In this document: positions 2,549 to 61,722 of the stretch, in pieces
Layout of the letters: each line of letters opens with the position of its first letter
How positions within the stretch are numbered: the first letter of the stretch is position 1
Source of the DNA: Mortierella sp. BCC40632
Taxonomy: Eukaryota; Mortierellomycota; Mortierellomycetes; Mortierellales; Mortierellaceae
NCBI GenBank assembly: GCA_011634665.1
Contig: WAEK01000033.1
Coordinates: forward strand, 46,667-110,666
Length of the DNA: 64,000 nucleotides
Direction: 5' to 3'
Notes under the pieces: model-generated
What the model was told of the DNA's origin: nothing
Seen by the model: the letters and a program-made list of their open reading frames with translations, nothing else
Database searches by the model: none
Made by a program: the position numbers and the translations under genes

Positions 2549-2675
2549 TAGATCATGTCAATTAAGACATGATTTGTATTAAACTATCTTTTAATCAATT
2601 CTTGCTAAATAAATTTTTCCGGGAATTAAAAATTCCCTCGAATCTGAAATATTATTATCAGTCTTTGTTCCCATT

Positions 2676-13645: not shown

Positions 13646-13735
13646 ATTTTTTTTTTTTGTTTTTTATTTTATAATTCGAGCGGGCCACTTATACAAACTT
13701 TACAAGGCCTAGCATAAAGCAGGTGCAGAGTAATT

Positions 13736-40095: not shown

Positions 40096-40097
40096 AT

Positions 40098-43207: not shown

Positions 43208-44672
43208 ATGCTTACATCTTTAATTTTAATACCTTTAATAGGTGCATTATCCTTATTATTTGTAAATAACAAATCCTTAATTAAACAAATAACATTAGGT
43301 ACTACTATTGTTAACTTTTTCCTTAGTTTAATTATTTGGGGGAAATTTGATAATAATACTCATGAATATCAATTTGTACAAGAATGGGCTGAAATATCGT
43401 TCTGTCATTTTAATGTAGGAATAGATGGTATATCATTATTTTTTGTATTATTAACAACATTTCTTTTCCCTATTATTATATTAACAAGTTGGGATCATAA
43501 AAATAACCTTAAACATTATTTATTAAATTTTTTAATTTTAGAAAGTTTATTAATAGCAACTTTCATAGTTTTAGATTTATTATTATTTTATATCTTCTTT
43601 GAAAGTATATTAATTCCATTATTCTTCATTATTATAAGTTTTGGAGATTTGTTGACTAAGGAAAAAGCTGGGTACTTATTATTTTTATATACATTATTCG
43701 GATCTTTATTTATGTTATTATCTATAATAACAATTTTAATTTTAACAGGAACAACAGATTTTCAAATCTTATCTACTATAGATTTTGGTACAGATGTAAA
43801 AAAATTTTTTTTATAGGATTTTTAATCGCTTTTTTTATTGTTAAAACTCCATTAATTCCGGCGCACATTTGGTTGGGCTTCGCTCACGTTGCTGCTCCAA
43901 TTGGTGGATCTGTATTACTAGCTGGTGTAATTCTTAAATTAGCTACATACCTAGCCTTACGGGTTATGATTCCATATTTCCCTGATGCTACTTTTACTTT
44001 TTTTACTCCTTCCTTTTTTTTACTTTAGCAGTAATCAGTATTATCTACGTCTTTCTTTTGTTTGTTTTAGATTATTAATGTTAAAGCTATTATCGCTTAC
44101 TCTTCTGTTTCTCACATGGGTGTTGTAGTGCTCGGATTGTTTTCAAATAATTTACAAGGACTTGAAGGTTCAATAATATTAGGATTAGCGCATGGTGTTA
44201 TATCTCCTTTTACTATTTATTATTGTGGGTGAAATCTTATATATAAGATCTCATACAAGAATAATTAAATATTATCGAGGTATCGCTTCCACAATGCCTA
44301 TTTTTTCTCTCTTTTTCTTTTTTTTTGCTACTCTTGCTAATATCGGTACTCCTTTCTCAGGGTAACTTTTTATTGGAGAATTTATGTCTTATGCTGGTGC
44401 TTTTTCAATTAAATCCCGTAATCACTATACTTGGGGCTACAGGGATGTTCTTGTCTGCAGCATACTCTATCTGGTTATTTAATAAAGTTTTTTTTTCGGG
44501 TCTGCCTCTAGATACATGAGTACTATGCCAGATATCTCAAGAAGAGAATTCTCTTCGTATTACCTCTTATTATTATTTTATTTTCATTTTAGGTGTTTTA
44601 CCCTAATATAGTATTAGATTCTTTACATTTAGGTGTAAGTTCTTTACTAATTGGTGTGAACACCCCCCTAGA
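43208..44672 (+). CDS. nad4: NADH dehydrogenase subunit 4, with several frameshifts
   Basis: The N-terminal 200 codons are intact (MLTSLILIPLIGALSLLFVN ... LLFYIFFESILIPLFFIIIS). The protein then continues across frame changes near 43803, 44030, 44075, 44220, 44365 and 44500: KTPLIPAHIWLGFAHVAAPI, GSVLLAGVILKLATYLAL, AIIAYSSVSHMGVVVLGLFS, GLEGSIILGLAHGVISPFTI, LGATGMFLSAAYSIWLFNKV. Complex I membrane subunit. Most breaks are in homopolymers. The C-terminus (FYPNIVLDSLHLGVSSLLIG, VNTPL) runs in frame into a GIY-YIG ORF. As read it cannot be translated; it may be a pseudogene, edited, or mis-sequenced. Confidence 0.85.
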
Positions 44673-45493
44673 GATTGTTCTAAGCTTTATACCAGCCTTT
44701 GTTTTATTAAATAAAAATAAAGAAGGATCCAATTTAGAGGAATCTAATACAATTAACCCATTATATGTTTATGAGGATATTATCGGTTCTAGATCTCAAA
44801 TACAAAAAGATCTTAAAGGGAAATGTGGGATATATCAATTTATTAATAAAGAAGATCCTACTAAAACTTATGTAGGTTCTTCAATAAATTTATGGGAAAG
44901 AATTCGATATCATTTAAGAACAGCTAATAATGAGAATTACACTTATGTTTCCTTATTATATAGAGGAATAGCTAAACACAAATGGGAAGGGTTTAAATTA
45001 ATTATTATTGAATTGACTGAGAATAATAAAAAAATTCTATTAGCTAGAGAACAATATTATCTAGACTTGTTAAAACCTTATTATAACATACTTACAGAAG
45101 CAGGCAGTCCAGCAGGTCGTGTATTAAGTATAGAGACTAGGGCTAAAATTAGCTTAGGGGTAAAAGGGGAGAAAAATGGAATGTTTGGTAAAACTCATTC
45201 TACAGAAACTAGGGCTTTAATGAGTTTAGCTCAATCTGGGGAAAAAAAAAAATCCTTTCTGGGGTAAAAACAACTTCCTGAAAAACTAAACTAAATTAGC
45301 AATGAGTATTGCTAAAGGAACTGCCATATATGTTTATTCTGCAGATAAAAGTACACTTCTTAATACTTTTAGCTCGGCTAGAAAAGCTGCTGAACATTTT
45401 AATAGTAATCATAAATTAATTTTAAAACATGCTAGAGATGGATCATTATTTAAAGATCAATGGATACTCTCTATAAAACTTTTAAATGATTAA
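44593..45493 (+). CDS. nad4 C-terminus fused in frame to GIY-YIG endonuclease
   Basis: The open frame from 44593 encodes the last codons of nad4 (through IGVNTPLEIVLSF), a linker, then the endonuclease: KGKCGIYQFINKEDPTKTYV, SSINLWERIRYH, LAREQYYLDLLKPYYNILTE, NUMOD3-type GEKNGMFGKTHSTETRALMS. A frameshift in an A run at about 45243-45252 separates the tail (45302-45493, GTAIYVYSADKSTLLNTFSS ... DQWILSIK). The fusion without a stop suggests that the endonuclease is made as a C-terminal extension of Nad4 and released by processing (inference). AAACACCCCGTTGGGCCCC follows about 75 bp after the stop. Confidence 0.8.
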
Positions 45494-45618
45494 CTTTGAT
45501 TATTCTGATAGGGGGTATATAAATATATTAGTACTTTTATATATATATAAAAAAATATATAAACACCCCGTTGGGCCCCCTCCAGAGTAGGGCATAAAAG
45601 ATCATATAAGATATCAAC

Positions 45619-45820
45619 ATGGTAATTCTTTATAATTTTAATCGAATGGCGTTTGGTGCTGCTTCTCGATATATGAGTACTATGCCGGATATTAATAGAA
45701 GAGAGTTCTTTGTAGTTCTTCCATTAATCATTGTTTCTTTCATTTTAGGTGTTTATCCAAATGTAGTATTAGATTTTACACTTAGGTGTAAGTTCTTTAC
45801 TAATTGGTGTGAACACCCCC
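45619..45820 (+). pseudogene. nad4: Displaced nad4 3' end (second copy)
   Basis: NRMAFGAASRYMSTMPDINR, REFFVVLPLIIVSFILGVYP, NVVLD, then with one indel LHLGVSSLLIGVNTPP. It matches, and is better preserved than, the end fused to the GIY-YIG gene. It ends in GAACACCCCCCCC and leads into a LAGLIDADG relic. Confidence 0.85.
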
Positions 45821-45827
45821 CCCCTAG

Positions 45828-46560
45828 ACCTAAGTGAGATAACTATTCTTTCTTTAATCCCATTATTAGGAGTAACAGAGAATTCTAAACAAAAATTAGA
45901 TCCATTTTTTGTAACGCCACAGGCCGGATTTACTGATGCCGAGAGATGTTTTATGATAAATATTAGAGAAAGAAACAAAAATCTTATTGGTTGGGGGGGG
46001 TTAATGCGATATTAAAAATTGAACTACATTCAAAAGATTTATCTTTATTAAAAGAAATCCATACATTTTTTGGAGTTGGTAATATTTCATTTTATAATAG
46101 ATGGAGTTTATTTTTCTGTTCAAGATATGAAGTATATAACAGATGTAATAATACCTCATTTTAATAAATATCCTACAGAGTGCTAAAAATAGATTATGAG
46201 TTATGGAAACAGTGTATAAACTTAAAAATTCAAGAAAAATCATTAACGTTGTTCAGCTTAGAGGAAATAATAGCAATAAAGGAGCTATTAATTTAGGTTT
46301 ACCTGATAAATTAAAAATTGCTTTCCCTAATGTTAAAATTTTAACTAGACCAGAGTTTAAAGTTAGTGAAGGAAAATTAAATCCTCATTAGATTAGTGAG
46401 TTTAGTACAGGTGATTGTTGTTTTTCATTTTCTATAAGTGAAAATCGAGCGTATGCTTCTTATATTATTCATCTACATCAGAGAGAAGAACCACTTTTGT
46501 TAAAAATTATGGAATTTTTTAGTTTAAAAAAGGTTATATAGGATCTCATGAGAGAAAACT
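45828..46560 (+). pseudogene. LAGLIDADG pseudogene behind nad4 copy 2
   Basis: KLDPFFVTPQAGFTDAERCF, MINIRERNKN, then across frameshifts LLKEIHTFFGVGNISFYNRW, LRGNNSNKGAINLGLPDKLK, and a second motif region ISEFSTGDCCFSFSISENRA. This is the two-motif LAGLIDADG_1 type. The motifs are damaged (DAERCF for DAEGCF; GDCCF for GDGCF) and stops are frequent. Confidence 0.75.
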
Positions 46561-46799
46561 TCAGTAATATATCGAATTGTAGCTACATCTGATTTAAATA
46601 CATTTGTTCTACCCATTTTTTTAAAAAAAATGATTTGATTTTAGTTTTTATTTGATTAATGAAAGGATTAGAATTAAGATTTTTATTAAAGAATATAAGA
46701 TTCTATTCTTATAAGCTTGGGCTTTGATTTTTTTTTGAATTATAAAATCTCTATAAATAATTAATAGTAGCAGAGTATTTCTACAAACAACTCTTTTTG

Positions 46800-47580
46800 T
46801 TACCGTCTGCGAGAAGGGGGTGTTCATATAAATTATTAATATATAAACGAAAAATAATCTACGACTTTTAGTCAAATCAGCATATTTGGCCCCTACTGAT
46901 TTGATTTACCTCAGCTATGCTAAGATGTAGATAATAGCCATTCCTTTTGAAACAATTTGCCATTTTTAGCGAATTTTATAATTGTTGGATAAAAAAACAA
47001 CCAAAATGTTCAGCAGCTTTCCTTGCTGATAAAAAAATATAAGCTAGTGAACCTTGAGTATCATATACATAAATAGCAGTTCCTTTTTAGCAATACTCAT
47101 TTTATCTAAAGTTTTAACAGAATGAGTTTTTCCAAACATTGGATTTTTTCTCACCTGTTCTATCAATACCAACCATAGGATTATTCTCACCAAACTTAGC
47201 TATACTCATTTTTTTTTTTTAGCTTCCTCTATGATTATAACCTAATGAATTACCTGCCCTTTGAAGAATATTCATAGTAGGCCTAATGACATCAATGTAG
47301 AATTGTTCCTGACTAATGGTATCTTTAATTTCACAATACTCAAGAATAATAATACTAAAATTAGAGTAACCATTTTTTATGATAGAAGAATATATAACGC
47401 TTCTTCTATTAACAGAACTAGAAATATAATTATAATTAAAATATTGAGCAAATCTTCTACTTAAGTTAGTAGAACTTCCTACATAAGAATTTCCAGTTAA
47501 TAAATTAATAAATTGGTAGACACCGGGTTTATTTTTATTCTCTAGAATAATTTTTTTCTTTATCAAGGTCGCATTTTTTG
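46800..47580 (-). pseudogene. GIY-YIG pseudogene with tail
   Basis: The N-terminal domain is intact at 47566-47219 (NKNKPGVYQFINLLTGNSYV, SSTNLSRRFAQYF, SQEQFYIDVIRPTMNILQRA). NUMOD3 pieces and a tail (GTAIYVYDTQGSLAYIFLSA ... ending QKEWLLSTS-like) are readable with frameshifts to 46915. After the stop come the stem AATCAGTAGGGG...CTGATT and a second hairpin, then GAACACCCCCTTCTC (46800-46822). Confidence 0.7.
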
Positions 47581-48190
47581 ATATATTTTAATAGGCACTG
47601 TACTAGATAATGATATAAATACATTAAAAGCTTCTATAGTATCTAAGCTGACAGAAAAGAAAAACATGGAAAATCCGGCCTGTGGCGTTATAAAAAAAGC
47701 AAAACAAATTAAATTTAAGAAAACGATCCCAATGAATAAAAGGTAATCTAAGTGTTTAGTCCCTCGTAGAGGATATTTATTAAAAAAAGGAACTGCCTCC
47801 GGCGGTTCCCCCCCTGTGGGGAGGAACTATAATATTTTTAATACTATATTGATCTGATACTGTGAAATCTAAACAATCTTTAAGATCTATTTTACTAATA
47901 TTACCGCAATTGAAATATTTTTTTATCATATGTAATAATACAATATCTCGCACATGAGCAGTAATTCTAAATCGAGGTTTAACACTAAATCCTGTATTAA
48001 TGGTTTTAGATTTACTAATAGCAAAATCAAAACAACCTTCAGCATCAGCAAAACCGGCTGCGCGTTATGAACGAAGGAGAAATATTTATTGGAACTTGAG
48101 GTTCATTTAATAAAATTGGTTCTTTACGATCCTTAGAATAATTTATTATTAAAGTAGATAAGCTTAAAGTCAATAAACTTTCTTCATTTA
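47580..48190 (-). pseudogene. LAGLIDADG pseudogene with two GC insertions
   Basis: Minus strand: GFADAEGCFDFAISKSKTIN, TGFSVKPRFRITAHVRDIVL, LHMIKKYFNCGNISKIDLKD, then a GC insertion (47796-47830), NKYPLRGTKHLDYLLF, and a second-motif region degraded. CCGGCTGCGCG sits just before the first motif (48052). The preceding frame (NEESLLTLSLSTLIINYSKD) resembles the linker between cox2 and its LAGLIDADG ORF. Confidence 0.7.
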
Positions 48191-48224
48191 AGATTATTGA
48201 CATATTTAAATAATCACATATCAA

Positions 48225-48352
48225 AAAGCACAGAACATAATTTGATCAAGATTAATAATTCTATCAAAAGATGGTAATGCCCTATCTTGAATAGAAAATC
48301 GCCAAGGTATTAACATGTCACAAAAAGAGTAACATTAAAATTGAAAAAGTTT
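48225..48352 (-). pseudogene. cox2: cox2 5' end, degenerate copy
   Basis: Minus strand: NFFNFNVTLFVTC, then IPWRFSIQDRALPSFDRIIN and LDQIMF, corresponding to [12 protein letters not shown]...[19 protein letters not shown] of the cox2 at 50956. Several substitutions and indels make it non-functional. Confidence 0.75.
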
Positions 48353-48464
48353 AATAACATGATTAGAAATTTTTAATTTAATACAAAAATGAGATTTAAT
48401 TATTTATATTATATGAATCGGACACGGTCACTTTAATAATTAATATTATTAAGACGCGGAGCCG

Positions 48465-48512
48465 GGGGGGTGTTTAGCTTAAGTATTCGTTAAGCTAAAC
48501 TAAAATTTTCGA
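48465..48512. repeat. GGGGGGTGTT junction with hairpin
   Basis: GGGGGGGTGTTTAGCTTAAG, then ...TTAAGCTAAAC: an 11-bp stem GTTTAGCTTAA/TTAAGCTAAAC next to the G tract, the same layout as the GIY-YIG tails. Confidence 0.75.
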
Positions 48513-48547
48513 GAACTGCCTAATTATAGACAGAAATCGGGAGCATT

Positions 48548-49330
48548 CTAACTTAAATGCTCATTTAACCAAGCTAAATATTTCTCAAGAGAAACAGCTT
48601 GGATAACAATTGGCATAACAGAAATTATTATCGATAAAGTGTTTAGCTCTATCTTCCAATAGTTACCTATTGGCTTAGACTATGTTATCAACCAATATAC
48701 TTGATGGTAAATGGTTGTAGGGGGCACTCGTGTCCGGATTATTGCTAGTGCTGCTCACCGATTAGTCGTTGAACGTTCGTATACCTATAAAGACACTGAT
48801 ATACGCTTCGCTGCAAATTATCCCTCTGTGAAAAGGATGTTTTTGCAATTCACCCTATTTGCATTAAAGTATTATTACTCTAAGGGGCTTTTTTTTAATT
48901 TAACCCATGATTTACACCACATAACTCTGCAGTATTAATAATTTATTTCAAAATAAAACTGGACTATATCATCATCCTTTTCCATAAAGGATGTTAAGCA
49001 TGTAGTCTCTGAGGATCTCCACCGAGTTCCGAATGGGTTTCCCTGATTGATTGTCCAATCCTTAAGATTTTTTTACCTTTACTCACAATAAATGGTACTT
49101 AAGGCTCTAAGGATGTTCCAGCATATAGCTTAATACAAATTATATTGTTACCAATATAAAGGTCCAGAATTTGAACATTGACCATAGAATAACCCTTCTC
49201 GGTTAATAAACGTAGAAGTTTGATTTAACCGACCTGGGATAGAATCTAATTTAAGACCTAAAAGCTGGAACAAAAAAAAGAATGTATAACATCGCTACCA
49301 GTTAAAATAAATCTAACATGAGTATGGTTT
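48548..49330 (-). pseudogene. cox2: Displaced cox2 3' end in three exons
   Basis: Exon pieces on the minus strand: about 49327-49172 ([15 protein letters not shown] ... [19 protein letters not shown], ending GQCS), a 24-base exon at 48927-48904 (ELCGVNHG), and about 48621-48548 ([20 protein letters not shown], then LS and stop). Two group I introns separate them: the first has CCTCAGAGACTACATGC and GATATAGTCCAGTT, the second GCAGCGAAG, ACGTTCAACGACTA and AACATAGTCTAAGCC. This looks like the original, intron-containing end of cox2 left behind when an intronless end plus LAGLIDADG ORF was inserted. Small indels (around 49275) show decay. Confidence 0.85.
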
Positions 49331-49430
49331 TAGAATGTTTAATTTTAAAAAAATACAGTAAAAGGGGAGTATAATTAGTTTAAGTTTTTTATTAAAAAAA
49401 AAGTAAAATTAAATATTATTAAAAAAATAG

Positions 49431-50150
49431 TTAGGTAGCAAGTTTATACATCATTGATTCATAGAAATGAGGTGTAACAAGAGATATAAATTTATCCATG
49501 AAATCCGATTTTATATAAATTCTATAGCTATTTTTACTTTTATGAATAGAGCAATTTAAATCAAAATTATCTTTTAAAGCTTTAATCAATAATTCTATTT
49601 CTTTAAAAGAATAAGATTCCGTAGACAATGTAAACCCTGAACTTTGTGAAAAACCATCATCCATTGCCCAATATGCTAAACTTACAGGTGTTAAAAGTTC
49701 CCCTATATTTAAAGGAATGGTTTTAACACCATCAATATAAAACAATTCCCGATAATAATTAAAACAAGGTAAGGCGTAAGAACTTAATTGAATTCTAGTA
49801 TATACTTTACCTGTACGTTTATCAGGTTTAAACTCACTGTATTTAGGTGCTGAACTACAATAATCTTTAAATAAAGAATATAAATGTAAGATATATGCTT
49901 CATGAATTATACCTTGTTCAAACATTAAATTAGCATTTATCCCCTTAGCATGTTTACGAATATAAAGATCGCCTAAACAATTACCTATGATAACTTCATG
50001 TAAATGCTGAGGTATAGAAAATGAATCTCTTTCAATTTTAGTTAATCTTCGTGTGCTATAACTTCTATCTAATAAAAAAAATTTTGAAGAGGTTTTAGGT
50101 TCATCAATAGGAAGAGAATTTTTAGAAGTTTTTTGAATATTTAATTAAAA
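49431..50150 (-). CDS. LAGLIDADG homing endonuclease joined to cox2 3' end
   Basis: Readable from about 50130 (KTSKNSLPIDEPKTSSKFFL, DRSYSTRRLTKIERDSFSIP) through motif 1 VIIGNCLGDLYI, FEQGIIHEAYILHLYSLFKD, motif 2 SLAYWAMDDGFSQSSGFTLS, to ESMMYKLAT and stop 49431. The first ATG in frame (49925) is after motif 1, so real translation must begin upstream, most likely as an extension of Cox2 (one base shift near 50125 separates the frames). Both acidic motifs are intact. Closest relatives in the window are at 1836 and 7001. Confidence 0.85.
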
Positions 50151-50164
50151 TAGAAGACGTACTT

Positions 50165-50956
50165 AAAGTTAATAGTTCCTCTTCTTCAGGGGGGGGAGTT
50201 TAATTGTTCGTTTAACCATGCTAAGTATTTCTCTAAAGAAACAGCTTGGATAACGATTGGCATAAACCCGTGGTTAACACCACACAATTCTGAACATTGT
50301 CCATAGAATAAACCTTCTCGGTTAATAAACGTTGAAGTTTGGTTTAACCGACCTGGGATAGAATAAATTTAAGACCTACCTAAAGCTGGAACAGCAAAAG
50401 AATGGATTACATCACTTCCTGTTAGTATAAATCTAACATGCGTATCAACAGGTAATACTACTCTGTTATCTACTTCAAGTAATCTAAATTGTCCTTCCTC
50501 CAAGTCTGCCTCTGGAACCATAAAACTATCAAAAGCTATTGGTTCTCCAGAATCTGAGATATAATCAGAGTATTCATAGCTCCAGAACCATTGAGAACCT
50601 ACAGCTTTAACAGTAATAGCAGGATCTATTACTTCATCCATCAGATACAATAATCTAAAACTTGGGAATGCTATGGCAACTAGAACTAATGCAGGAGTAA
50701 TTGTCCAAATTAATTCTATAACAGTACCATGTGTAAAATATTTGTATACAATAGGGTTTTTAGCTGTATTAAATTTAATAATAATTGTACCTAACATCCA
50801 AGATACAAGAATAAGAATTATTATTAAATAAAACATAATTTGATCATGAAGATCTACAATTCCATCAAAAGATGGTGATGCTCCATCTTGGAAAGAAAAT
50901 TGCCAGGGCTCCGGCATGTCACAATAAGCAACATTAAAATTGAAAAGGTTTAACAT
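50165..50956 (-). CDS. cox2: Cytochrome c oxidase subunit 2, with in-frame stop from small indels
   Basis: 195 codons from ATG 50956 (two N-terminal helices: [20 protein letters not shown] and [20 protein letters not shown]; then the cupredoxin domain with [10 protein letters not shown]). At about 50371 there is a 4-base duplication (AGGT) plus a 1-base loss, giving ALGRS and a TAA; reading in the same frame resumes with [20 protein letters not shown], the CuA ligands in [14 protein letters not shown], and [12 protein letters not shown]. The displaced copy at 49.3 kb has the normal sequence at this spot. The C-terminus is extended ([16 protein letters not shown]) through a C run towards the LAGLIDADG ORF instead of ending ...NEHLS. 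Complex IV, electron entry site. Confidence 0.9.
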
Positions 50957-51074
50957 AATTAAAAATTAAGAATCTTGTACAAAAAATGAAATTTAATCAT
51001 TTATATATTCATAACGGTTATAGCCACTTTTAATCAATAACCTACAATATAGGGGGCCGACGATTTTTAATTAA

Positions 51075-51147
51075 GCACTTGTAACTTAACTGGAAAAGTG
51101 TGAGTCTTCGAAACTTAATAATAATAGTTCAAATCTATTCAAGTGTT
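51075..51147 (+). tRNA. trnR: tRNA-Arg(UCG)
   Basis: Acceptor GCACTTG/CAAGTGT, D arm ACTT/AAGT, anticodon stem TGAGT/ACTTA around CTTCGAA (anticodon TCG), and T arm ATAG-TTCAAAT-CTAT. Related to tRNA-Arg(UCU) at 62681 and to a 3' fragment at 51969. Confidence 0.8.
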
Positions 51148-51167
51148 CATAATTTAATATTAAAAAC

Positions 51168-51530
51168 CCCCATTCGCGGGGGGCGGGGGTGTTAATCAAA
51201 AATTTTGATTAAACGTTAGCATAATTGGGACGTTATAGTATATTATAACCCTACTATAATTATTCCTTAGAAATTAAGGAAGTTGATAAAATCCATTTAT
51301 CTTTAAATTAAGGAAGTAGATAAAATCCATTCTTTTCTAAATAATTTGTTTTTATCTATATATCTAGATAATGTACGTAAACCGCATTTAAAATGTAAAC
51401 TCACTTCTGAACAATTATCAAAAGATTTATGCAGTTTTTTTATTAGAAAGAGAATCAAAAGAGTAAACAAATACTCTTTTATTTTTTGCTAAACTCATTT
51501 TAGCTTTAGTTTCAGCTGAATGTTTTGACC
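51168..51530 (-). pseudogene. GIY-YIG C-terminal fragment with tail
   Basis: Minus strand 51530-51257: NUMOD-like SAETKAKMSLAKNKRVFVYS, then SFDNCSEVSLHFKCGLRTLS, RYIDKNKLFRKEWILSTSLI. A 30-bp piece around the last codons (AAGGAAGT-GATAAAATCCAT) is tandemly duplicated. After the stop: TATAGTAGGGTTATAATATACTATA stem (split here for length: TATAGTAGGG / ATACTATA), hairpin GTTTAATCAAAA/TTTTGATTAA, then ACACCCCCGCC. Confidence 0.7.
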
Positions 51531-51742
51531 ATTGCCAATAAAGAATGGTTAACCTGAATAGTCAGTAAAGGCGCAATTAATTTAATAATAATAGAGATCA
51601 ACTTATTCGTAACTAAACAAGAAGAATCCATAAAGGAAATCTATTAATAAAAAATCAAAGAAATGAAAAAAGAGAAGCTAACGGTATTGTGGGCGACACA
51701 AAGTTACTCGTATCTAGGTGGGTAGAGAGGTAGGATAAAAAA

Positions 51743-51816
51743 TTAACCAAGGAAGACTCGAACTTCCGTCTTTAAAATATCTAAGAGATCCGCTGTTTTA
51801 CTTAAACTATTGATTT
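51743..51816 (-). tRNA. tRNA-like, anticodon unresolved (sister of 31034)
   Basis: Minus strand. D arm ATAGTTTAAGTAAAACAG, T arm GGAAG-TTCGAGT-CTTCC, acceptor AATCAA/TTGGTT. The anticodon arm (GGATCTCTTAGATATTTTAA) does not fold normally. Downstream minus-strand sequence (TTAATTTTTTATCC ... GATACGAGTAACTTTGTGTC ... GTTAGCTTCTCTTTTTT) recurs at 59868-59955. Confidence 0.45.
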
Positions 51817-52501: not shown

Positions 52502-52632
52502 ATGATAATTTATTTATTAGAAGCATTAATTGTAATAGGACCTTTATTGGGTTCTATAGCTTACGTTACAATTGCTGAACGTAAAATTATGGGATCGATG
52601 CAGAGACGTATCGGTCCGAATCGCGTAGGGTT
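52502..52632 (+). CDS. nad1: NADH dehydrogenase subunit 1, exon 1
   Basis: MIIYLLEALIVIGPLLGSIA, YVTIAERKIMGSMQRRIGPN, RVG: the universally conserved Nad1 N-terminus. Homology stops at RVG and resumes at 56177 with [15 protein letters not shown], so an intron of about 3.5 kb separates them. The open frame beyond 52632 (LRFLLDFELDLIIS...) is intron sequence; a related segment (TTAGATCTTATCATAT) is repeated near 54435. Confidence 0.9.
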
Positions 52633-52821
52633 AAGATTTTTATTGGACTTCGAATTAGATCTTATCATATCTACATTAGCATGTAATAATAATAAACACC
52701 CCCTTGGGCCCCTTCTCTTACTTAGTCATTAAATATAAGAATAAATCTTATATTATATATTTAATAATAATATTATTAAAGGGAATCTTTTATTGTAAGT
52801 TCAATTCTAACCTATCAAGGT

Positions 52822-53030
52822 TGATTAACCAATGACGAGTTTGTCGGGTAAAGATTATAAAATTATAATCATTATAATCAAGTTAAGTGTGCAAAATTAC
52901 CATGAAAAAAATTATAAAAAATTTTTGTAAATCAGTTTTCTAATAAGAATTTCTACTGGGGAAGTTTTCTAGGAAAAAGAATTATTTCCTTAGTAGAAAG
53001 CTGTAATTATGGGATTTATATTAATTATAA
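52822..53030 (+). repeat. Copy of the cox3 leader
   Basis: Repeats 39880-40095 with few differences (shared TTTCTACTGGGGAAGTTTTC, TTAGTAGAAAGCTGTAATTA). It leads into the GIY-YIG gene at 53009. Confidence 0.85.
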
Positions 53031-53930
53031 AAATGTTCAACTTAAATAAAAAATTTACTTCTAGCAAGTTATTAAATTCATTAAAAAAAAATAGAATTAA
53101 TAGCGGATCTTCAATGAATAATAATAATAGTAATGATAAAAATTTGATTAAGAATTTACAATTATTTTTTCTAACTATAGAGTTATTCTCAGGATTGTTA
53201 CATTTAGAAAGCATAAAAACAATTATTAGAGAAGAAATAAAAAATAAATCTGGTATTTATGGATTTTTTTGTAAAACAACGCGTAAATTATATATTGGTT
53301 CTTCAGTGGATTTATATTCTCGTTTCAATGACCATATTGTTGGTTCTAAATCAAATATTTTACTCCAAAGAGCTATAAATAAATACAAATTACAAGATTT
53401 CATTTTTATAGTATTTCAATATTGTGAAGAGGAGAAACTGATTTCTCGAGAACAGTTTTATTTTGATGAGCTTAAACCTGAATATAATATTCAAAAAATT
53501 GCCGGTTCTTCTCTAGGTTTTAAACATTCTGAGGAGACTAAAGCTTTACTTAGTAAGTTAAATAAGGGAGAAAATCACCCTATGTTTGGTAAATCTCATT
53601 CAGCGGAATCATTGGCGAAAAGGATGGGTGAAAATCATCCTATGTTTGGAAAAAATCATAGTGCTGAAAAAAAAAAAAAAAATAAGTGAAGCTAAGCTAG
53701 GTAGATTTCCTTCTGAAGAAACTAAAAGCTAAAAAAAAAATTAGTGCGGCTAGAGGAGCTGCTATTTATATTTTTTTTCTTTTAGATAAAAAAACCATTT
53801 TAGTTAATAGTTTTCCTTCAGCTTCTAAGGCCGCTATAGGATTAAACGTTTCTAGAGAAACAGTGTTAAATTATGCTAAAAGTGGTAAAAAATATTAAAA
53901 AAACAATATATCATATCTTTCTCTAAAGAG
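53009..53930 (+). pseudogene. GIY-YIG endonuclease behind cox3 leader, frameshifted late
   Basis: 226 codons: Asn/Ser-rich N-terminus, then NKSGIYGFFCKTTRKLYIGS, LISREQFYFDELKPEYNIQK, AGSSLGFKHSEE, NUMOD3 units (GENHPMFGKSHSAES, GENHPMFGKNHSAE). A run of about 15 A at 53670-53684 shifts the frame; the tail continues (ISEAKLGRFPSEETK ... ARGAAIYIFFLLDKKTILVN, ETVLNYAKSGKKY). The start may be ATG 53009 inside the leader copy or 53033, which is where the cox3 ATG would be. Catalytic residues are intact. Closest to the 34830 gene. Confidence 0.85.
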
Positions 53931-54127
53931 TTTCAGTAATAAATACGAACTCTTCAAGAATATATATAAATTGATCCCGGTAGTTCCATACCCCCCGCAG
54001 GCACTAGCTCGGAGGAATAGTTAAACTTAGCCTAAAAGTTATTTTCTCATTTAGTTTTAATTTCTGCCAAATAACAAATTATTCAGAATTTGTTCCAGCT
54101 TTTTTTACTAGCCTGAAAGGTGCTGGT

Positions 54128-54222
54128 ATTAAAAACTGCAAACTACGCTAGAGTGGGCGATAACGTCTTCTCCAGCATTCCATGCATTTGAAGGTCAATT
54201 ACCTGTACAATCAGTTAGTTAA
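54128..54222 (+). pseudogene. cox1: Displaced cox1 3' end
   Basis: Translates as LEWAITSSPAFHAFEGQLPV, QSVS and stop TAA, the C-terminus of cytochrome oxidase subunit 1 (pattern LEW...SSP..HAF...P.Q). The stop overlaps the junction GTTAACACCCCCC. The main cox1 is not in this window. Confidence 0.75.
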
Positions 54223-54659
54223 CACCCCCCAGGCTCCCTTTTTCAAACCTTTTATTTTCCAAGGCTTAAATTATTTTTTATAGTTATAATCTATAGTAAG
54301 GTTATCTTTCATTGTAAGATTCAATTAATCCTAGAGTTCAGTATACAGGAGGATTAATTAAAAACAAAAGATTAAAGTAAATATTTCAAAATAATCGTGT
54401 AGGTCAACATAATCCTATTGACTTTTTTTCAAATTAGATCTTATCATATTTCTGCTATAACATATAATAATAATAATAAACACCCAACTCCTATTGAATT
54501 CTTAATATAAAGATAGAGCAGCTCCAGTAAAAATTTTTGATAGTAACAAAATTATTGCTACTTGCTTTTAATCTTTTTTTTATGTAGTTACAGTAAATAG
54601 TAAAATTTCAAGTTGACATGTTAATAAATATTATTGTACTATAATATATTCATAATGGG

Positions 54660-55640
54660 CATAATAATAAGGAGGGTGTTTAGATTACTCTAAACAAGAA
54701 AATTATCGTCTGACCAGAGTCTAATAGTATATAACCCGGCTGCGCACTATTATTTTTAGAAATTAAAGATGTTGATAAGATCCATTGTTTTTGTATAACT
54801 TATTTTTATCTACATAATTAGATAATGTACGTTACTACAATTAAAGTATAAAAGACGCTTCTGTATAATTATCAAAAATTTTATACAATCTAGTTTCATT
54901 TGAAAGAGAATCAAAACTATACACAAAATTTTTTTTTTATTCAAAGCTCCCTCCGGGCGCTCCGCCCGGGGTGCCCCCCCTTGGGGAGCTTTTAGTAATT
55001 AATGCTTTTGTTTCAGCACTATGAGTATGACCTAACATTCCTCATGGATTATTCTCACCTAATTTAGCTTCACTCATTTTTGCTTTTTTGTTTCAGCAGT
55101 ATGAGTACGACCGTAAAAAGGATGATTTTTCATTGTTCGACCGTACATAGGATTTTTTTCATCTGTTTGACCAAACATAGGATGATTTTTTTCTAGACAT
55201 TTTAGCAAGAGTTTTTCTGAATGTTTAAATCCAAGCAAGGAACCGGCTGCGCGCGCTTTTAAGTGTATTATATGTATTTGGTTTAACCTCTGAAAAAAAA
55301 AAATGAAATCAAGATAATTCTGCTCACGTTCAATAATCAATTTACGTGCATCTTCTAAAGATAAATTCGAGATATCAATATATTCAATAATAGTAAGAGA
55401 AAATACTGCAAATCCATGATCTTGTAAAAAGCACTACAGATATAAGAATTTCCTCTTACATTTTGAAGGTAAGCTTTTTAGAAAAAAATATAGCCCTAAT
55501 CATCTAGATAAATCCACTGCTGAACCAATATATGTTTTACCTGATTCATAAGTCCACATATATATTCCGCTTTTCCCTTTATTATCAGTTAAAATAGTTG
55601 ATTTATCAGTATATGCATTACTATAAATTTTTTATTGGCC
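54660..55640 (-). pseudogene. GIY-YIG pseudogene with GC insertions and tail
   Basis: Minus strand from about 55640: NKGKAEYICGL..., LNLSLEDARKLIIEREQNYL, AGSLLGFKHSEK, GRTMKNHPFYGRTHTAETK, then MSEAKLGENNP, ALITKA, GC palindrome (54945-54990), and a tail ending NKNNGSYQHL. Many frameshifts. CCGGCTGCGC-type insertions at 55242 and 54735. Tail: stem AATAGTGCGCAGCC...TATACTATT, hairpin GTTTAGA-GTAA-TCTAAAC, then ACCCTCC. Confidence 0.75.
54945..54990. repeat. GC-rich palindromic insertion, AGCT-flanked, copy 6
   Basis: Same element as at 823, after AAAGCT and ending AGCTTTT, in a GIY-YIG pseudogene. Confidence 0.85.
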
Positions 55641-56176
55641 CGAGATTTTACTTATTTATTTTTTTTCCTTTTTTGATAAAGGAGTTTTATCAGATTAAAT
55701 TAATTAATAATTATATTAATTTATATTTATTGCTTATTATTATTATTTTTGTTTTTTTATGTGATAAGTTCAAGTCCAATAAAGAAAATTATTTTTCTTC
55801 GGCCTAAAGTTAAAGTAAACCTTTAGCTATAAACCATCAAATTGCGGGAACGCCCTAAAGCAATTTCAACTAAACAAGAATGGTAACATGTCTTGTGGCA
55901 CAGGTAATGACTCGTGGTATAGTAAAATCGAAATTGATGTACGAGAGGAAATGGGTAATCCGCAGCCAAGCACCATTTTTAAAATGGTGTGCAGTTCATC
56001 GACTATACGGTGGTTGGCGCAAGCTTAAGATATAGTCAGACCCTACTTGAAAAAGAGTACAGGATAATAAATTTATTATCCGTTAAATGGATAGTTTAAC
56101 TATTTAGGGAGAAGGGGAGAAGGATCCTTAGTATATTTATAATGTTTAATAATAAATAACTAGAAGGATAGATTTG

Positions 56177-57045
56177 TACTATGGGTTATTACAAGCATTC
56201 GCAGATGCTTTTAAAATTACTAGTTAAAGAATTAGTATTACCTTCAAATACAGATAAAAAAATTTTTTGTATTAGCGCCTATGATTTTTTTTTAGTTTGT
56301 GGTTTTTAGTTTGGACTCTAATACCGTATGGAAAAGGTTTAGTAATTGCTGATTTTTCTTTTAGGTATTGTAACAATTTTAGCTATATCTTCAGTAGCAG
56401 CTTATGGAATTATATTAGCGGGTTGGGCCTCAAACAATAAATATTCATTTATAGGTTCTTTTAAGAGCTACAGCACAATTAATAAGTTATGAAGAAGTTT
56501 TTGGGTTAATAATTTTATTAGTGATATTTTTTGTAGGTTCATTTAATTTAACTACAATTATAGAATCTCAAAAAGCTATTTGGTATATTGTACCATTATT
56601 CCCTATAGCATTAATGTTCTTAATAGCTATATTAGCTGAAAGTAATAGAGCACCTTTTGATTTACCAGAATCAGAATCAGAATTAACAGCTGGGTTCATG
56701 ACTGAATACAGTGCGTTTCCATTCGTGTTCTTCTTCTTAGCTGAATATGGTAGTATTGTGTTCTTAAGTACTTTATCTTCTATACTATTCTTAGGAGGTT
56801 ATTTAGTACCTGGTGTTGAATCAAATGGTTTAATGACTGGTCTATCTCTTGGATTGAAAACTTCATTCATGTTATTCCTTATAATTTGGATACGTGCGTC
56901 ATTTCCGAGATTACGATACGATCAGTTAATGTCAGCTATTTGGTGTAATATGCTTCCTATAGTTATTGCGTTCTCAATTTTAATTCCGTGTATTATCAAG
57001 GCTTTTGATATTTACACCCCCCCCCCAAGCCCACGAAAAGTATAA
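56177..57045 (+). CDS. nad1: NADH dehydrogenase subunit 1, exon 2, frameshifted in its first third
   Basis: [78 protein letters not shown] and [19 protein letters not shown] are spread over frames by 1-base indels between 56200 and 56500; from 56521 to 57045 it is clean ([60 protein letters not shown]). Complex I membrane subunit near the quinone site; the [10 protein letters not shown] loop is intact. The native end is altered: ...AFDIYT then P-rich codons in a run of ten C. Confidence 0.88.
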
Positions 57046-57061
57046 TTATTTTTTTATAAAT

Positions 57062-57137
57062 AGAACAATAACTTAACAGAAAGCAAGCTTTCTGTCAGGT
57101 ATGGAGTATAATGGAAGTTCGATTCTTCCTTGTTCTT
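57062..57137 (+). tRNA. tRNA-like, anticodon unresolved
   Basis: Acceptor AGAACAA/TTGTTCT is perfect and the T arm is GGAAG-TTCGATT-CTTCC, with a D-arm-like AACTTAACAGAAAGC. The middle (AGAAAGCAAGCTTTCT) is itself a hairpin and no normal anticodon arm forms. Related remnant at 32167-32248 (minus). Confidence 0.4.
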
Positions 57138-57564
57138 ACTAATTTCAATTTCTACCTTTATATTAAGGTAATATTATTTAATATAGTATACAGATCTGTA
57201 TATTATTAAATTTTTTTTTTTTTTTAATTAAGTTGAATATTTCGTATTTTTTTTTTATTTAAACCAATAAAAAATACTTAATTATTTTTCATAATAGATT
57301 AAAAAGTACTTACAAGTTAAATATTAAACTCATTTAATAATAATTATATGAGGTGGCAATAAATTGCCTTAAATTAATAACTTATTTTGCTTATTATATA
57401 AAATAAATTTTTACCGGGTGTAAAAAATACTATATAATTTGACATATACCTTCGTTAGAGGGTATACCTTATTATCTATGACCAGTAACCTGTTTCATAG
57501 TATGATTTTGGTAATATAAAATTTTTATAATATACAAAAATGATAAACTTATTTAATAATTTTA
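57138..57564. other. AT-rich intergenic stretch
   Basis: Long T and A runs; a stem GACATATACC...GGTATACC near 57440-57465. No gene seen. Confidence 0.4.
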
Positions 57565-58850
57565 ATTTTTCTTCCAAATGGTTCTCTGGGACCTGGTGCA
57601 GTAAATAAAATGGCTTATAGCCCTTTTGTTACTCCTTCTTTTACTTTAAAACAAGCTTTATGTTTTTCTACAGAAAATATAAAAGATCAAAAATCTTTAA
57701 TTAACTACAATTCTATTTTAAAAGGCCAAACTCCGGAATTTAAACAATGGTTTGTTGGATTCTTAGATGCTGAGGGATGTTTTTATATAAATTATAGACA
57801 AGATAATACTTTTCGTTTAATGATAAAAATTGTTTTACATATAGACGAATTACCTTTATTGAAAATTCTACATAAAAAAATTAGGTTGTGGTGTTATCTC
57901 AAAAGTAAAAAAGTATATCTCAATATACTATTAATAAACAAAGTGATTTAATAAATATTATTGTACCAATATTGGAAGAATTTCCTCTCAATACTACAAA
58001 ATATTTAAATTATCTTGATTTTAAAAAAACTTTAGATATTATGCAGAGAAAAGAGCATTTAACCGATAATGGAAAATTACAAATTTTAAATTTAAAAAAT
58101 AAGATGAATAGATCCAGAACAAACTATGAAATGCCGTCTAAGCATTCTATTAGAATAACACCTTCATGGCTTTTAGGTTTTATTGAAGGTGATGGATCAT
58201 TCACAACTACTAAATCAATGCCCTTTTTAAGTATAGCTCAATCAATAAAAGATTATGCTGTTCTTAAAAAAATATCAGAATATTTTAGTTCTGGTACATT
58301 ACAAGAACAAAAAATAACAAATCGATATAAGGATGAGCAATCAATGGTAAGATTAATTTGTCAAGATATTATCTTTTTACATAATACACTTTTACCATTA
58401 TTAGACTCATTAGAATTTTTATTCTAAAAACAACTTGACTATAAAGATTGGGCAATTATAGTTAAGTTATATTATTCTGGTATTCATTTATACCCTCAAG
58501 GTGAAAAATTAATAAATGATTTGAAAATGAATATGAATAATTATCGATTATCTACTTATAAGAATCTAAATGATAAACCAATAATTACTCAAGAAATGAT
58601 TAATGAAGTTTTATCTCTGGAACCTTTATATCATTTAGTAGATTCAAAACGAGTACATATAAAATCTAATAAACCTTTACGTTCAGGTAGAATGCTAAAA
58701 AATTCTAGCTAAAAAATATTGATAATAGTTCTATGGAATTTAATAGTATTAAAGAAGCAAGCAAGTTCTTTAAGTGTCATACCGATACAATAAGTCGACG
58801 TATTAACACTGATAGATTGTATCTAAATAAATGGAAGTTCACCACTATTT
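57565..58850 (+). pseudogene. LAGLIDADG endonuclease (two-motif type) with frameshifts
   Basis: Frame 57610-57951 holds FKQWFVGFLDAEGCFYINYR (motif 1); 57972-58427 holds SIRITPSWLLGFIEGDGSFT (motif 2) and AQSIKDYAVLKKISEYF; 58521-58712 holds NDKPIITQEMINEVLSLEPL and DSKRVHIKSNKPLRSG; a NUMOD-type tail (FNSIKEASKFFKCHTDTISR ... LYLNKWKFTT) ends near 58850. At least three single-base breaks. Both motifs keep Glu/Asp residues. It stands downstream of the nad1 end, and a second copy of its C-terminal part follows nad1 copy 3. Confidence 0.8.
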
Positions 58851-59178
58851 AGTTATATTAATCATAATGTACGCCAAATTATACTGTTATAATCGTTCTT
58901 ACAAAGTAAGAAATCCTACCCTCTAAATCCGATCCTACCTCCGAGGTTAGGTAGTTCGGGAAAGAGTCTTTAGTTGCCCACGTAGCGCTGGGCTTAGTTT
59001 ATAATATTTGTCATATGCAACCTTGCATTAAGTTTTATTATATGCAACCTTGCAATTAAGATTAATCATTGGGTTATTCTTAAAATATCTAATATATCTA
59101 TAAGCCCATTTGTGTTATAGATAGGGTTAGAGTTTATATTTAAATTCCTTGAAAAAGCTTAAAAATAAACACCCCACC
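58851..59178. other. Intergenic
   Basis: Two near-identical TATGCAACCTTGCA segments at 59013-59050, and AAACACCCCACC at 59166 just before the nad1 copy. No gene seen. Confidence 0.45.
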
Positions 59179-59508
59179 ATCATATTCTGCCTTCCTTTTT
59201 TGTATTCTTCTTCCTTGCAGAGTACGGTAGTATTATTTTTAAGTACTCTTAGTTCAATTTTATTCTTAGGTGGATATTTAGTACCTGGAATTGAATCAAA
59301 CGGTCTACTTACTGGTTTATCTCTTGGATTGAAAACTTCATTCATGTTATTCTTGATAATTTGGATACGTGCGTCATTCCCGAGATTACGATACGATCAG
59401 TTAATGTCAGCTATTTGGTGTAACATGCTTCCTATCGTTATTGCGTTCTCAATTTTAATTCCGTGTATTATCAAAGCTTTTGATATTTACACCCCCCGAG
59501 TTATATAA
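59179..59508 (+). pseudogene. nad1: nad1 3' end, second copy
   Basis: [78 protein letters not shown], ending [13 protein letters not shown]. Nearly the same as codons 56713-57010 with a few synonymous or conservative changes (VPGIES for VPGVES). Ends in TTTACACCCCCC. Confidence 0.9.
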
Positions 59509-60338
59509 AACGATGATATACTTTAACAAAAATTTTAACCATTTTGCGATAACTAGAATTAATTCCATTGCTAATGCCCGGCCCGTCCCGCAAGGTAGAG
59601 CAGGCCAAGGCTTTCTGTAAATCTTAATTTTTCTCTCTATAAGAGTGTACCTTAAAAGTTAACAGTCCCCTAATAGAACCTAGAAACATAAGATTATTAA
59701 GCAAGTGTCTTTTACTAATACTGGTAAGGGTATGCAAAGCCTATTGATTTAGTGACCTAAAATATCTAATTTTTTTTAATTAGGAAAATATTAACATAAT
59801 GGTCATATAATTATTATGGGGTTAGTAGTAATACTAATGAGAGTTCAAGTCTCTCCTCTGATATTCTTCCTTGGTCAATTTTTATTCTCACCTCTCACAT
59901 AGATACGAATATTTTTTGTGTCGCCCGATGATACCATTAGCTTCTCTTTTTTGCTCTAATAAACAATTATTAATAAATATTATATTCCCTAGAGACCAAT
60001 AATAATATATTTAGTTGTTCCTGGTCTTTAAAACGATCAGGGTCGACGAGAGCCCTTTGGGCCTAGTAGATCATTTTATCTATACGGGAGTAATAGATAG
60101 GAGGAGATGTAACTCTATGATTAAATTTATCAACAAAATGTTAAGGCGGCTAATACCCCAACCTTCTTCTTGAAGATAATTTTTCTTGCTAGTAATTAGT
60201 TATTGGAAAACAGCCTCCTCAATGCTGCAGAACCATGTTAGAGGGCCCTAAATTCCGAGGGACATGGAGATAAGTTAGGGAATTCTTTGATTCAAAGCCC
60301 GAACTTATGATAATAGGATCCAATTATAATACAAAAAA
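59509..60338. other. Intergenic, leader-like region
   Basis: GC cluster at 59577-59612 (CCGGCCCGTCCCGC). 59868-59960 repeats, in reverse, sequence at 51655-51750 (TGTGTCGCCC, ACC(G)TTAGCTTCTCTTTTTT). 60100-60160 resembles the leader of the 30592 GIY-YIG gene. A tRNA-like T arm (GAGAG-TTCAAGT-CTCTC) at 59851. Confidence 0.45.
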
Positions 60339-61201
60339 ATGGCAAAATTATTTAACAAATTTAATACTGTAACTTTAAGTATCATAACTAAATTTACACC
60401 TTCGGAGCAAGTTTGTTTTTTTTTACAGAGAATAACTATAAATTGGATATTCAATTCAAAACATGGCTTATCGATAATAAACCTGCAAAAGTTTATTTAA
60501 ATAGTGCTGAATCTAAAAATATAATTTACAGTGAAAATTGTAGTAAATCAGGAGTATACTTATGGTATAATAATATAAATGGAAAATATTATGTAGGGTC
60601 AAGTATTAACTTAAAACATCGTCTTTATTATTATTTTAGTCCGGCATATCTTAAAAAAAATAAATTCTTAATACAAAGAGCTCTTATGAATCATACTCAT
60701 AATACTTTTTTTCTTTATATATTAGAGTATTGTGATATTAAAGACTTAATTTTAAGAGAACAATATTATATTGACTTACTAACTCCTCCTTATAATATTA
60801 ACCCTACGGCTTATTCACGTTTAGGTTCTAAACATAATGAAGATTCTAAGGAATTAATGCGAATTAACAACATCGGAGAAAAAAATCCAATGTATGGAAA
60901 ATCTCATTCAGCAGAATATAAAACAATTCTTAGTGAACGTATGACTAAGAATAATCCTATGGCGGGTAAACCTTGTACTGAGGAAGTAAAAATTATAATA
61001 AAAAAAGTACAAAGTATACCTTTATACGTATATGATGCTAATACTAAATTATTATTATTTAAATATGATTCTCAAAAAGAATTTGTTAAAGCTTTTAAGG
61101 TTTCTACTAAAACCATAATTAAATATGTTAATACTAACAATACATTCCGTGGAAAATATATATTATCAAGTACTTTATTAGATAATACTTCTGAAGAATA
61201 G
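60339..61201 (+). CDS. GIY-YIG homing endonuclease (262 aa main frame)
   Basis: Main frame from TTG 60413 to 61201: SKSGVYLWYNNINGKYYVGS, SINLKHRLYYYF, LILREQYYIDLLTPPYNINP, YSRLGSKHNED, NUMOD3-type GEKNPMYGKSHSAEYK and KNNPMAGKPCTEE, tail TFRGKYILSSTL. GIY appears as GVY, with YVG, Arg and Glu present. An upstream start ATG 60339 (MAKLFNKFNTVTLSIITKF) matches MAKLF... of the 350-aa gene, but a T run at about 60414-60422 puts it in another frame. It lies between nad1 end copies 2 and 3. Confidence 0.85.
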
Positions 61202-61304
61202 AATTTCCTTCAAGATTAGGTACAAGACTTTAGGGGAATATAAAGTCTTAGAAAATAGTTTACGCATTGGATATGAGCAAGTTTTTTATAGAAAATAAAC
61301 ACAT

Positions 61305-61440
61305 TGGATTAGAGCAAGTTTTCCGAGATTAAGATATGATCAACTTATGTCTGCAATCTGGTGTAATATGCTTCCTATAATTATTGCGTTCTCAATTTTA
61401 ATCCCGTGTATTATCAAGGCTTTTGATATTTACACCCCCC
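61305..61440 (+). pseudogene. nad1: nad1 3' end, third copy
   Basis: [45 protein letters not shown], then read-through into a LAGLIDADG remnant. More diverged at the DNA level than copies 1 and 2 (e.g. AGATTAAGATATGATCAACT), so it may be the original end or from another source. Confidence 0.88.
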
Positions 61441-61722
61441 TCCTCCCAAAGTTAGTAGATTCAAAACGTGTTCATATAAAATCTAATAAACCTTTACGCT
61501 CTGGTAGAAAATGTAAAAATTATAGCTCCCTTCGGGAGCTACACCACCGGGGAGCGACCCCCGGGTAGTTAGTAATATTGATAATAGTTTTATAATATTT
61601 AATAGTATTAAAGAAGCAAGCGAATTCTTTTAATGTCATACCGATACAATAAATAAACGTCTTGATACTGATAGATTATATCTAAATAAATGGAAATTTA
61701 CCTCTAGTTATATAAATAATTA
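61441..61722 (+). pseudogene. LAGLIDADG C-terminal remnant
   Basis: Joined in frame to nad1 copy 3: KLVDSKRVHIKSNKPLRSGR, then a GC hairpin (AGCTCCCTTCGGGAGCT at 61523) and FNSIKEASEFF...LYLNKWKFTS in another frame. Same sequence as 58640-58850, about 90% alike. The rest of the endonuclease is absent. Confidence 0.8.

What the first reader, a model, noticed from the sequence alone, without database searches (positions are those of the whole stretch)
43208..61722. Endonuclease elements at gene 3' ends with displaced gene ends left behind
Three genes show the same order: gene end, endonuclease ORF, then another copy of the same gene end. nad1: end at 57.0 kb, LAGLIDADG, end copy at 59.2-59.5, GIY-YIG, end copy at 61.3-61.4, LAGLIDADG remnant. 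nad4: end fused to GIY-YIG at 44.6, copy at 45.6-45.8, LAGLIDADG, plus a third copy at 1711-1815 behind a LAGLIDADG gene. cox2 (minus): end at 50.2, LAGLIDADG, intron-containing copy at 49.3-48.5. A lone cox1 end (54128-54222) and the nad6-LAGLIDADG join fit too. Known precedents are the mobile 3'-end elements of Allomyces atp6 and the mobile ORFs of Rhizophagus. Here both endonuclease families use the route, repeatedly at one gene, which suggests a general mechanism: insertion of [new 3' end + endonuclease ORF] with displacement of the old end.
Basis: partly seen in the sequence, partly recalled or inferred. Interest (0 to 1): 0.92.

Follow-up and report, generated by a model that had tools for sequence, protein, structure and literature searches.

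The report
Stacked endonuclease inserts at gene ends
In the mitochondrial DNA of an unnamed fungus, selfish DNA-cutting genes appear to have repeatedly replaced the ends of essential genes and pushed the old ends downstream; this type of insert is known from a few fungi, but here the layers are stacked and the copies are patchworks that show how they were assembled.

Summary
In detail: nad1 (three end copies), nad4 (three) and cox2 (two) show gene end, homing-endonuclease ORF, second end, and a loose cox1 end lies behind a GIY-YIG ORF. nad6 has an endonuclease but no second end. Two other contigs of the assembly carry most of the arrangement, and the order recurs outside the window at cob and nad5, and in part at nad3.

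The class is known: mobile 3'-end elements of Allomyces, Glomus/Rhizophagus sp. and Phlebia, already with both endonuclease families and several genes. Insertion with displacement is supported; novelty of the route is not.

What is added: (1) a stack at nad1, LAGLIDADG over GIY-YIG over a LAGLIDADG remnant, with displaced ends starting at two different codons; (2) tandem duplication is unlikely, because copies differ mostly synonymously and the displaced cox2 end has two group I introns that the attached end lacks; (3) copies are mosaics: at nad1, synonymous divergence is very high beside the insertion points and low beyond, and the same 54 nt are near-identical in one comparison and about 28% different in another. 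So only a tract beside the cut site need be foreign. (4) Relatives carry nad4 fused to GIY-YIG or LAGLIDADG endonucleases.

The parts
56455..57045 (+). nad1 last exon (its later part) ending in end copy A; from about 56712 on it is homologous to B, from 56902 on to C
   Evidence: Pfam NADHdh 1e-56; open frame in contig C46
57062..57137 (+). decayed tRNA copy between end A and the LAGLIDADG gene; the stretch 57043-57413 is about 80% like the tRNA-Met region C42:7107-7466
57547..58850 (+). LAGLIDADG_1 endonuclease gene HE1 with C-terminal NUMOD1-like tail (end approximate). No contig has it open from start to end: the breaks lie at different places in C33, C42 and C46
59186..59497 (+). nad1 end copy B, displaced; begins at codon YSAFPF (frame open in C42)
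60341..61201 (+). GIY-YIG endonuclease gene with NUMOD3 and NUMOD1 (start approximate; 290 codons open in C42, broken in C46)
61308..61443 (+). nad1 end copy C, displaced; begins at codon WIRASF
61452..61680 (+). remnant of an HE1-like LAGLIDADG C-terminus, in frame with end C (end approximate)
43208..44668 (+). nad4 to the end of its conserved part (end copy P); frame broken in this contig, open in C46 as far as C46 reaches
44669..45490 (+). GIY-YIG + NUMOD3 domains fused in frame to nad4
45640..45821 (+). nad4 end copy Q, displaced
45822..46388 (+). broken LAGLIDADG_1 gene fused in frame to copy Q
   Evidence: 45967-46161, 2.3e-6; the frame stops early in C42 and C46 too; the piece 46152-46388 alone gives no Pfam match
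1839..2561 (-). LAGLIDADG_2 endonuclease ORF; contains one TGA, read as Trp for the scan although the tRNA-Trp found has anticodon CCA
1714..1803 (-). nad4 end copy R, downstream of that ORF
50186..50965 (-). cox2 with its attached, intron-free end (frame broken once in this contig)
49434..50144 (-). LAGLIDADG_2 endonuclease frame; its first ATG/GTG/TTG (49925) lies inside the domain, so its start is unclear
   Evidence: 1.1e-49
49165..49325 (-). displaced cox2 end, first exon
48941..49183 (-). group I intron match in the displaced cox2 end (the match reaches a little into the exon)
48904..48927 (-). small cox2 exon (ELCGVNHG) between the two introns
48656..48912 (-). second group I intron match in the displaced cox2 end (reaches a little into the small exon)
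48553..48618 (-). displaced cox2 end, last exon
53009..53930 (+). GIY-YIG ORF in the nad1 intron, upstream of the lone cox1 end (308 codons open in C42; end approximate)
54072..54230 (+). lone cox1 end copy; the cox1 gene itself ends near C33:34922, outside the window
6992..7696 (+). LAGLIDADG_2 frame overlapping the nad6 tail at a C run; its first ATG/GTG/TTG is at 7388, so it may be read as a fusion; no displaced nad6 end found

Best explanation
Mobile 3'-end elements. A homing endonuclease cuts a conserved coding site near the end of a mitochondrial gene. Repair from an element-bearing copy leaves: gene body, new end that restores the protein, endonuclease gene, old end now displaced. At nad1 this happened at least twice at two sites, probably on top of an older LAGLIDADG insertion. 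Shown: order, repeated ends, mainly synonymous divergence, mosaic structure, broken endonuclease genes in the displaced nad4 copy and below nad1 end C. Inferred: that cutting caused the insertions; that the tract next to the cut site is foreign and that the parts farther downstream became alike by recombination between the copies; that the tract stays different because restoring the old sequence beside the gene body would recreate the cleavage site.
For: Order and homology; also at cob (C42 28471-30770) and nad5 (C42 4619-6997). Changes between copies mostly keep the protein: synonymous/nonsynonymous codons nad1 A/B 30/2, B/C 16/1, cox2 19/0 (first exon 13/0, last 6/0), cob 10/2, nad4 18/6, nad5 40/12 over 152 codons; too few nonsynonymous for unconstrained drift in five of six pairs tested, cox1 being the exception. 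The displaced cox2 end holds two group I introns absent from the attached end. Mosaic: nad1 A/B 31 of the first 136 nt differ against 7 of the last 179 (0 of 2000 shuffles; 0 of 20000). Control: nt 180-233 differ at 1 of 54 between A and B but at 15 (A) and 16 (B) of 54 against C, so that stretch is not intrinsically conserved and A shares B's GIY-layer sequence; only C, which lacks the left half of the GIY site, has the other version. No intron RNA between the nad1 ends or the nad4 ends. Relatives with nad4 fused to GIY-YIG (P0001, P0002, P0003, P0016, P0020) or LAGLIDADG (P0004, P0165), and a nad4 end + GIY-YIG without nad4 body (P0019).
Against: The proximal pattern is strong only for nad1 and nad4. 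The cox2 first exon alone gives 496 of 20000 shuffles, its last exon goes the other way (17919), and the whole cox2 end shows none (8074); cox1 (2746), cob (1784) and nad5 (2254) are weak; nad5 is patchy. cox1 copies differ at 3 synonymous and 3 nonsynonymous codons. Codon usage does not tell new from displaced ends (68 codons, P 0.35). No DNA of a related species was available, so which copy is foreign is not shown. That GIY-YIG came before HE1 is likelier but not forced: it could have entered the already displaced copy. Open frames had to be taken from different contigs, and HE1 is not open throughout in any of the three.
Confidence: 0.77

Rival explanations
1. Plain tandem duplication of gene ends by replication slippage, with endonuclease ORFs landing between copies by chance.
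For: Direct repeats in the same orientation are what slippage gives; parts of the copies are near-identical.
Against: An unused copy should collect amino-acid changes; nonsynonymous changes are far too few (P 3e-11 nad1 A/B, 3e-7 B/C, 3e-6 nad4, 1e-11 cox2, 7e-5 cob; only 0.08 for cox1). The displaced cox2 end has two introns that the attached end lacks. An endonuclease ORF lies between the copies at five genes (nad1, nad4, nad5, cob, cox2).
Confidence: 0.07
2. Alternative last exons: the endonucleases sit in introns, and the copies are alternative 3' exons used by splicing.
For: The Phlebia authors speak of alternative C-termini (PMC4019555); group I introns are present in the displaced cox2 end and upstream in nad1.
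Against: No intron RNA between the nad1 ends or between the nad4 ends even at a permissive threshold; nad4 runs in frame without a gap into the endonuclease.
Confidence: 0.06
3. Whole foreign ends were imported, and the near-identical stretches are simply constrained at the DNA level.
For: Known Glomus and Allomyces cases are described as foreign ends (PMC3630166); one donor lineage that supplied both A and the GIY-layer part of B would give the same data if two stretches of nad1 were constrained.
Against: Divergence rises at both nad1 insertion points; the same 54 nt are near-identical in A/B and about 28% different against C, so constraint there is excluded; only nt 135-179 (3 of 45 differ in A/B) and 234-314 (3-5 of 81) could still be constrained.
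Confidence: 0.2

Closest known systems
mORF gene hybrids of Glomus/Rhizophagus sp. DAOM 229456 (PMC3630166; section 18 part 1 of 2 and passages read)
   Same: Endonuclease ORF with an inserted gene end and a displaced native end at atp6, atp9, cox2, nad3; LAGLIDADG, and GIY-YIG in atp9; some fused in frame; protein largely conserved.
   Different: In what I read, one insertion per gene, and the ends compared there are given as 64-81% identical; here insertions are stacked at one gene and the copies are mosaics of diverged and near-identical stretches.
Allomyces macrogynus atp6 element (recalled, and as cited in PMC3630166)
   Same: The insert carries a new atp6 end and an endonuclease; old end displaced.
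   Different: One case, with the displaced end identical to that of a sister species; that comparison could not be made here.
Phlebia radiata atp6 and cox2 (PMC4019555; section 12 and passages read)
   Same: Repeated gene ends with endonucleases of both families; two cox2 end regions separated by three LAGLIDADG and one GIY-YIG domains.
   Different: No nested start points, mosaic analysis or in-frame nad fusions in what I read.
Tremella fuciformis introns with N-terminal duplication (PMC7315562; passages read, part of the abstract among them)
   Same: Host gene fragments exchanged together with a mobile element.
   Different: Gene starts and introns, not gene ends.

Membership tests
Mobile 3'-end (mORF) elements | Endonuclease ORF directly downstream of, or fused to, a gene end | tested here: met
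   Pfam GIY-YIG, LAGLIDADG_1 or LAGLIDADG_2 at nad1, nad4, cox2, nad6, cob, nad5, nad3; nad4 fusion
Mobile 3'-end (mORF) elements | Second copy of the same gene end beyond the ORF | tested here: met
   nad1, nad4, cox2 in the window, cob and nad5 outside; not met at nad6 and atp6
Mobile 3'-end (mORF) elements | Attached end keeps the protein while differing in DNA from the displaced end | tested here: met
   cox1 inconclusive
Mobile 3'-end (mORF) elements | Inserted end foreign, displaced end matching sister species | not testable with these tools
   no DNA of relatives found; codon usage inconclusive
Mobile 3'-end (mORF) elements | Hybrid gene transcribed | not testable with these tools
   no RNA data
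Mobile 3'-end (mORF) elements | Endonuclease cuts the uninterrupted gene at the insertion point | not testable with these tools
   biochemistry needed
Group I or II introns with internal endonuclease | Intron RNA core between the end copies | tested here: not met
   none in 56900-61800 nor between the nad4 ends; the two hits near cox2 lie inside the displaced end

The most novel reading that the evidence does not exclude
The mobile unit is defined by a short, synonymously different tract beside the cut site that makes its carrier immune. Recombination erases differences between new and displaced ends except in that tract, because losing it re-exposes the gene to cutting. Each newcomer that inserts upstream takes over the host reading frame, cuts its predecessor off from translation and lets it decay, so the gene end is a layered record of rival endonucleases, including a second visit by the same family.
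Probability: 0.3. Interest if true: 0.75.

Novelty: new variant of a known kind. Interest (0 to 1): 0.55.

Why it matters
It shows how selfish endonucleases may patch coding sequence between lineages without breaking essential genes, which would distort mitochondrial gene trees. The nested, mosaic copies give a way to read the order of invasions and to test self-immunity: the inferred cut sites lie near nad1 codons YSAFPF and WIRASF, nad4 FN-K/R-FG and cox2 THVRFIL, and both the presumed cut and uncut versions sit in the same genome.

Tried and rejected
Foreign codon usage of the attached ends: no signal. An endonuclease-poor cob allele on contig C36: the stretch is low in quality (76-84% with scattered gaps), so not used. 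A duplicated rnl end next to the LAGLIDADG_2-like ORF at 28120-28806: none found. DNA of relatives in viral contigs: 14 loci, matching only residues 295-473 of the query, its endonuclease part. A universal proximal-to-distal gradient: rejected as universal. The P values of six pairs were first combined with cox2 represented by its first exon only (1.8e-9); with the whole cox2 end and with nad5 added the combined value is 1.7e-8, and 8e-4 without nad1. For the nad1 GIY layer the A/C comparison was used; a count of 0 of 20000 was entered as 0.5; pairs were treated as independent. PMC11277600 (passages) held nothing on this class.
Full report
What the window is. The window is the last 64,000 bases of contig C33 (110,666 bp, 28% G+C) in a 49.9-Mb assembly of 62 contigs. 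It carries fungal mitochondrial genes. Contig C42 carries the stretch from 45.3 kb to the window's end (98%) and C46 the stretch from 43.5 kb (94-97%). C46 lacks the cox2 body and has a noisy patch, and single-contig indels are common.

The observation. At nad1 the order is end A, LAGLIDADG gene HE1, end B, GIY-YIG gene, end C, and then, in frame with C, the C-terminal remnant of an HE1-like gene, all three contigs agreeing. At nad4 the gene runs in frame into a GIY-YIG endonuclease (644 codons without a stop in C46); a second end follows, fused in frame to a LAGLIDADG gene whose frame stops early in all three contigs; a third end lies behind a LAGLIDADG_2 ORF at 1.7 kb. At cox2 the intron-free attached end is followed by a LAGLIDADG_2 frame and a second end split by two group I introns around an 8-9-codon exon. 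A cox1 end lies behind a GIY-YIG ORF inside the nad1 intron. The window matches between end copies have E-values from 4e-14 to 3e-110.

Outside the window. I looked for second copies of the ends of 11 genes (nad1, nad4, nad6, cox2, cox3 and rnl; cob, cox1 and nad3 through the sequence before ACACCC tracts; nad5, atp6 and again nad6). Five show end, endonuclease, end on one strand: nad1, nad4, cox2, cob (LAGLIDADG frame of 448 codons between) and nad5 (GIY-YIG between). Two fit in part: cox1 (copies elsewhere) and nad3 (a second end of 39 nt at the very start of the contig; a GIY-YIG ORF follows the main end, and the ORF after the other gives no Pfam match). Four do not: nad6, cox3, rnl, and atp6, which has only 57-68-nt fragments elsewhere. 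nad2, nad4L, atp8 and atp9 were not located.

Not simple duplication. Differences between copies are mostly synonymous: nad1 A/B 30 synonymous to 2 nonsynonymous codons, B/C 16 to 1, cox2 19 to 0, cob 10 to 2, nad4 18 to 6, nad5 40 to 12. Nonsynonymous changes are fewer than expected without constraint in five of six pairs tested (nad1 A/B, nad1 B/C, nad4, cox2, cob), not in cox1 (3 to 3; P 0.08) (nad5 was not put to that test). So both copies seem to have evolved for long as working gene ends, which a local duplicate left unused would not. The introns present only in the displaced cox2 end point the same way.

Mosaic copies. In nad1 A/B, 31 differences fall in the first 136 nt and 7 in the last 179 (0 of 2000 shuffles reach the change-point score). 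Synonymous divergence is 1.77 in the first 135 nt and 0.20 beyond; for B/C it is saturated in the first 54 nt and 0.29 beyond. The key control is nt 180-233, where the GIY-YIG layer begins: A and B differ at 1 of 54 positions, but from C they differ at 15 and 16 of 54. That stretch is thus not intrinsically conserved, and A carries the version that belongs to the GIY-YIG layer. The simplest account is recombination between A and the resident end downstream of a foreign tract. Proximal clustering is strong for nad1 (both layers) and nad4, weak for cob, cox1 and nad5, and absent for cox2 taken whole; combined over seven pairs P is 1.7e-8, and 8e-4 without nad1, taking pairs as independent. nad5 is patchy (217 of 20000 shuffles as uneven). 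So mosaicism recurs, but a one-way gradient is not general.

Mechanism. The displaced ends begin in conserved protein motifs, where homing endonucleases typically act (general knowledge). Copies that still carry both halves of a site (A and B for the GIY-YIG site) have one version; C, which lacks the left half, has the other. This is what self-immunity would require, but it was not tested. Deeper endonucleases are broken in the displaced nad4 copy and below nad1 end C, as expected if displacement cuts them off from translation; but the GIY-YIG under HE1 is still open with its own ATG in C42, and HE1 on top is not open throughout in any contig (different breaks in each), so this is no rule.

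Relatives. With the nad4-GIY part as query, 6816 of 7998 scored proteins matched and 120 were listed. In that listing five carry nad4 with GIY-YIG (P0001, P0002, P0003, P0016, P0020) and one nad4 with LAGLIDADG (P0004); P0165 is another. P0005, P0006 and P0007 end shortly after the conserved VNTP without an endonuclease. P0019 has a nad4 end fused to GIY-YIG but no nad4 body, which looks like an orphaned layer in another organism. I aligned 17 chosen relatives, so no frequency is implied.

Comparison with print. PMC3630166 (section 18 part 1 and passages) and PMC4019555 (section 12 and passages) describe the class, with both endonuclease families and several genes. I saw no description of nested displaced ends or mosaic copies there, but only two paper searches were answered and the nine after them failed, so absence from print is not claimed.

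Noticed in passing
whole contig C33, e.g. window 7.0, 44.7, 54.2, 57.0, 59.5, 61.4 kb: ACACCCC occurs 26 times on + and 14 on - against about 0.8 expected per strand, often exactly at gene ends (nad1, nad4, cox1, nad6); perhaps an mRNA 3'-processing motif like the C-rich one recalled from fission yeast (not checked).
   Followed up: partly
57043-57413: A decayed copy of a tRNA-Met region (intact tRNA at C42:7125-7198) sits between nad1 end A and HE1; part of the same stretch also precedes a LAGLIDADG-like ORF at C33:40678-41847.
   Followed up: partly
48369-48234 (-): Copy of the cox2 start (78%) just beyond the displaced cox2 end.
   Followed up: no
52821-53030 and 39879-40096: The 5' flank of cox3 is repeated (89%) inside the nad1 intron.
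   Followed up: no
C33:770-837 and C33:84447-84503 (window 37781-37837): 57-68-nt fragments of atp6 elsewhere in the contig, the first inside an ORF that leads into a GIY-YIG-type frame.
   Followed up: no
63643-63596 (-): A further, decayed cox1 end of about 48 nt.
   Followed up: partly
57547-58850, 60341-61201: Endonucleases of two families share a similar N-terminal leader (LFN-FNT ... FSTE), seen by eye, as if leaders were exchanged.
   Followed up: no
1839-2561, 6992-7696, 49434-50144: The LAGLIDADG_2 proteins behind nad4 copy R, nad6 and cox2 are 63-67% identical to each other: one family at three genes.
   Followed up: partly
10679-20382: Long ORFs of about 1000 aa that look like linear-plasmid polymerases, judged by eye only.
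   Followed up: no
28120-28806: LAGLIDADG_2-like ORF just downstream of rnl (30-32% to the cox2, nad4 and nad6 ones); no second rnl end.
   Followed up: partly
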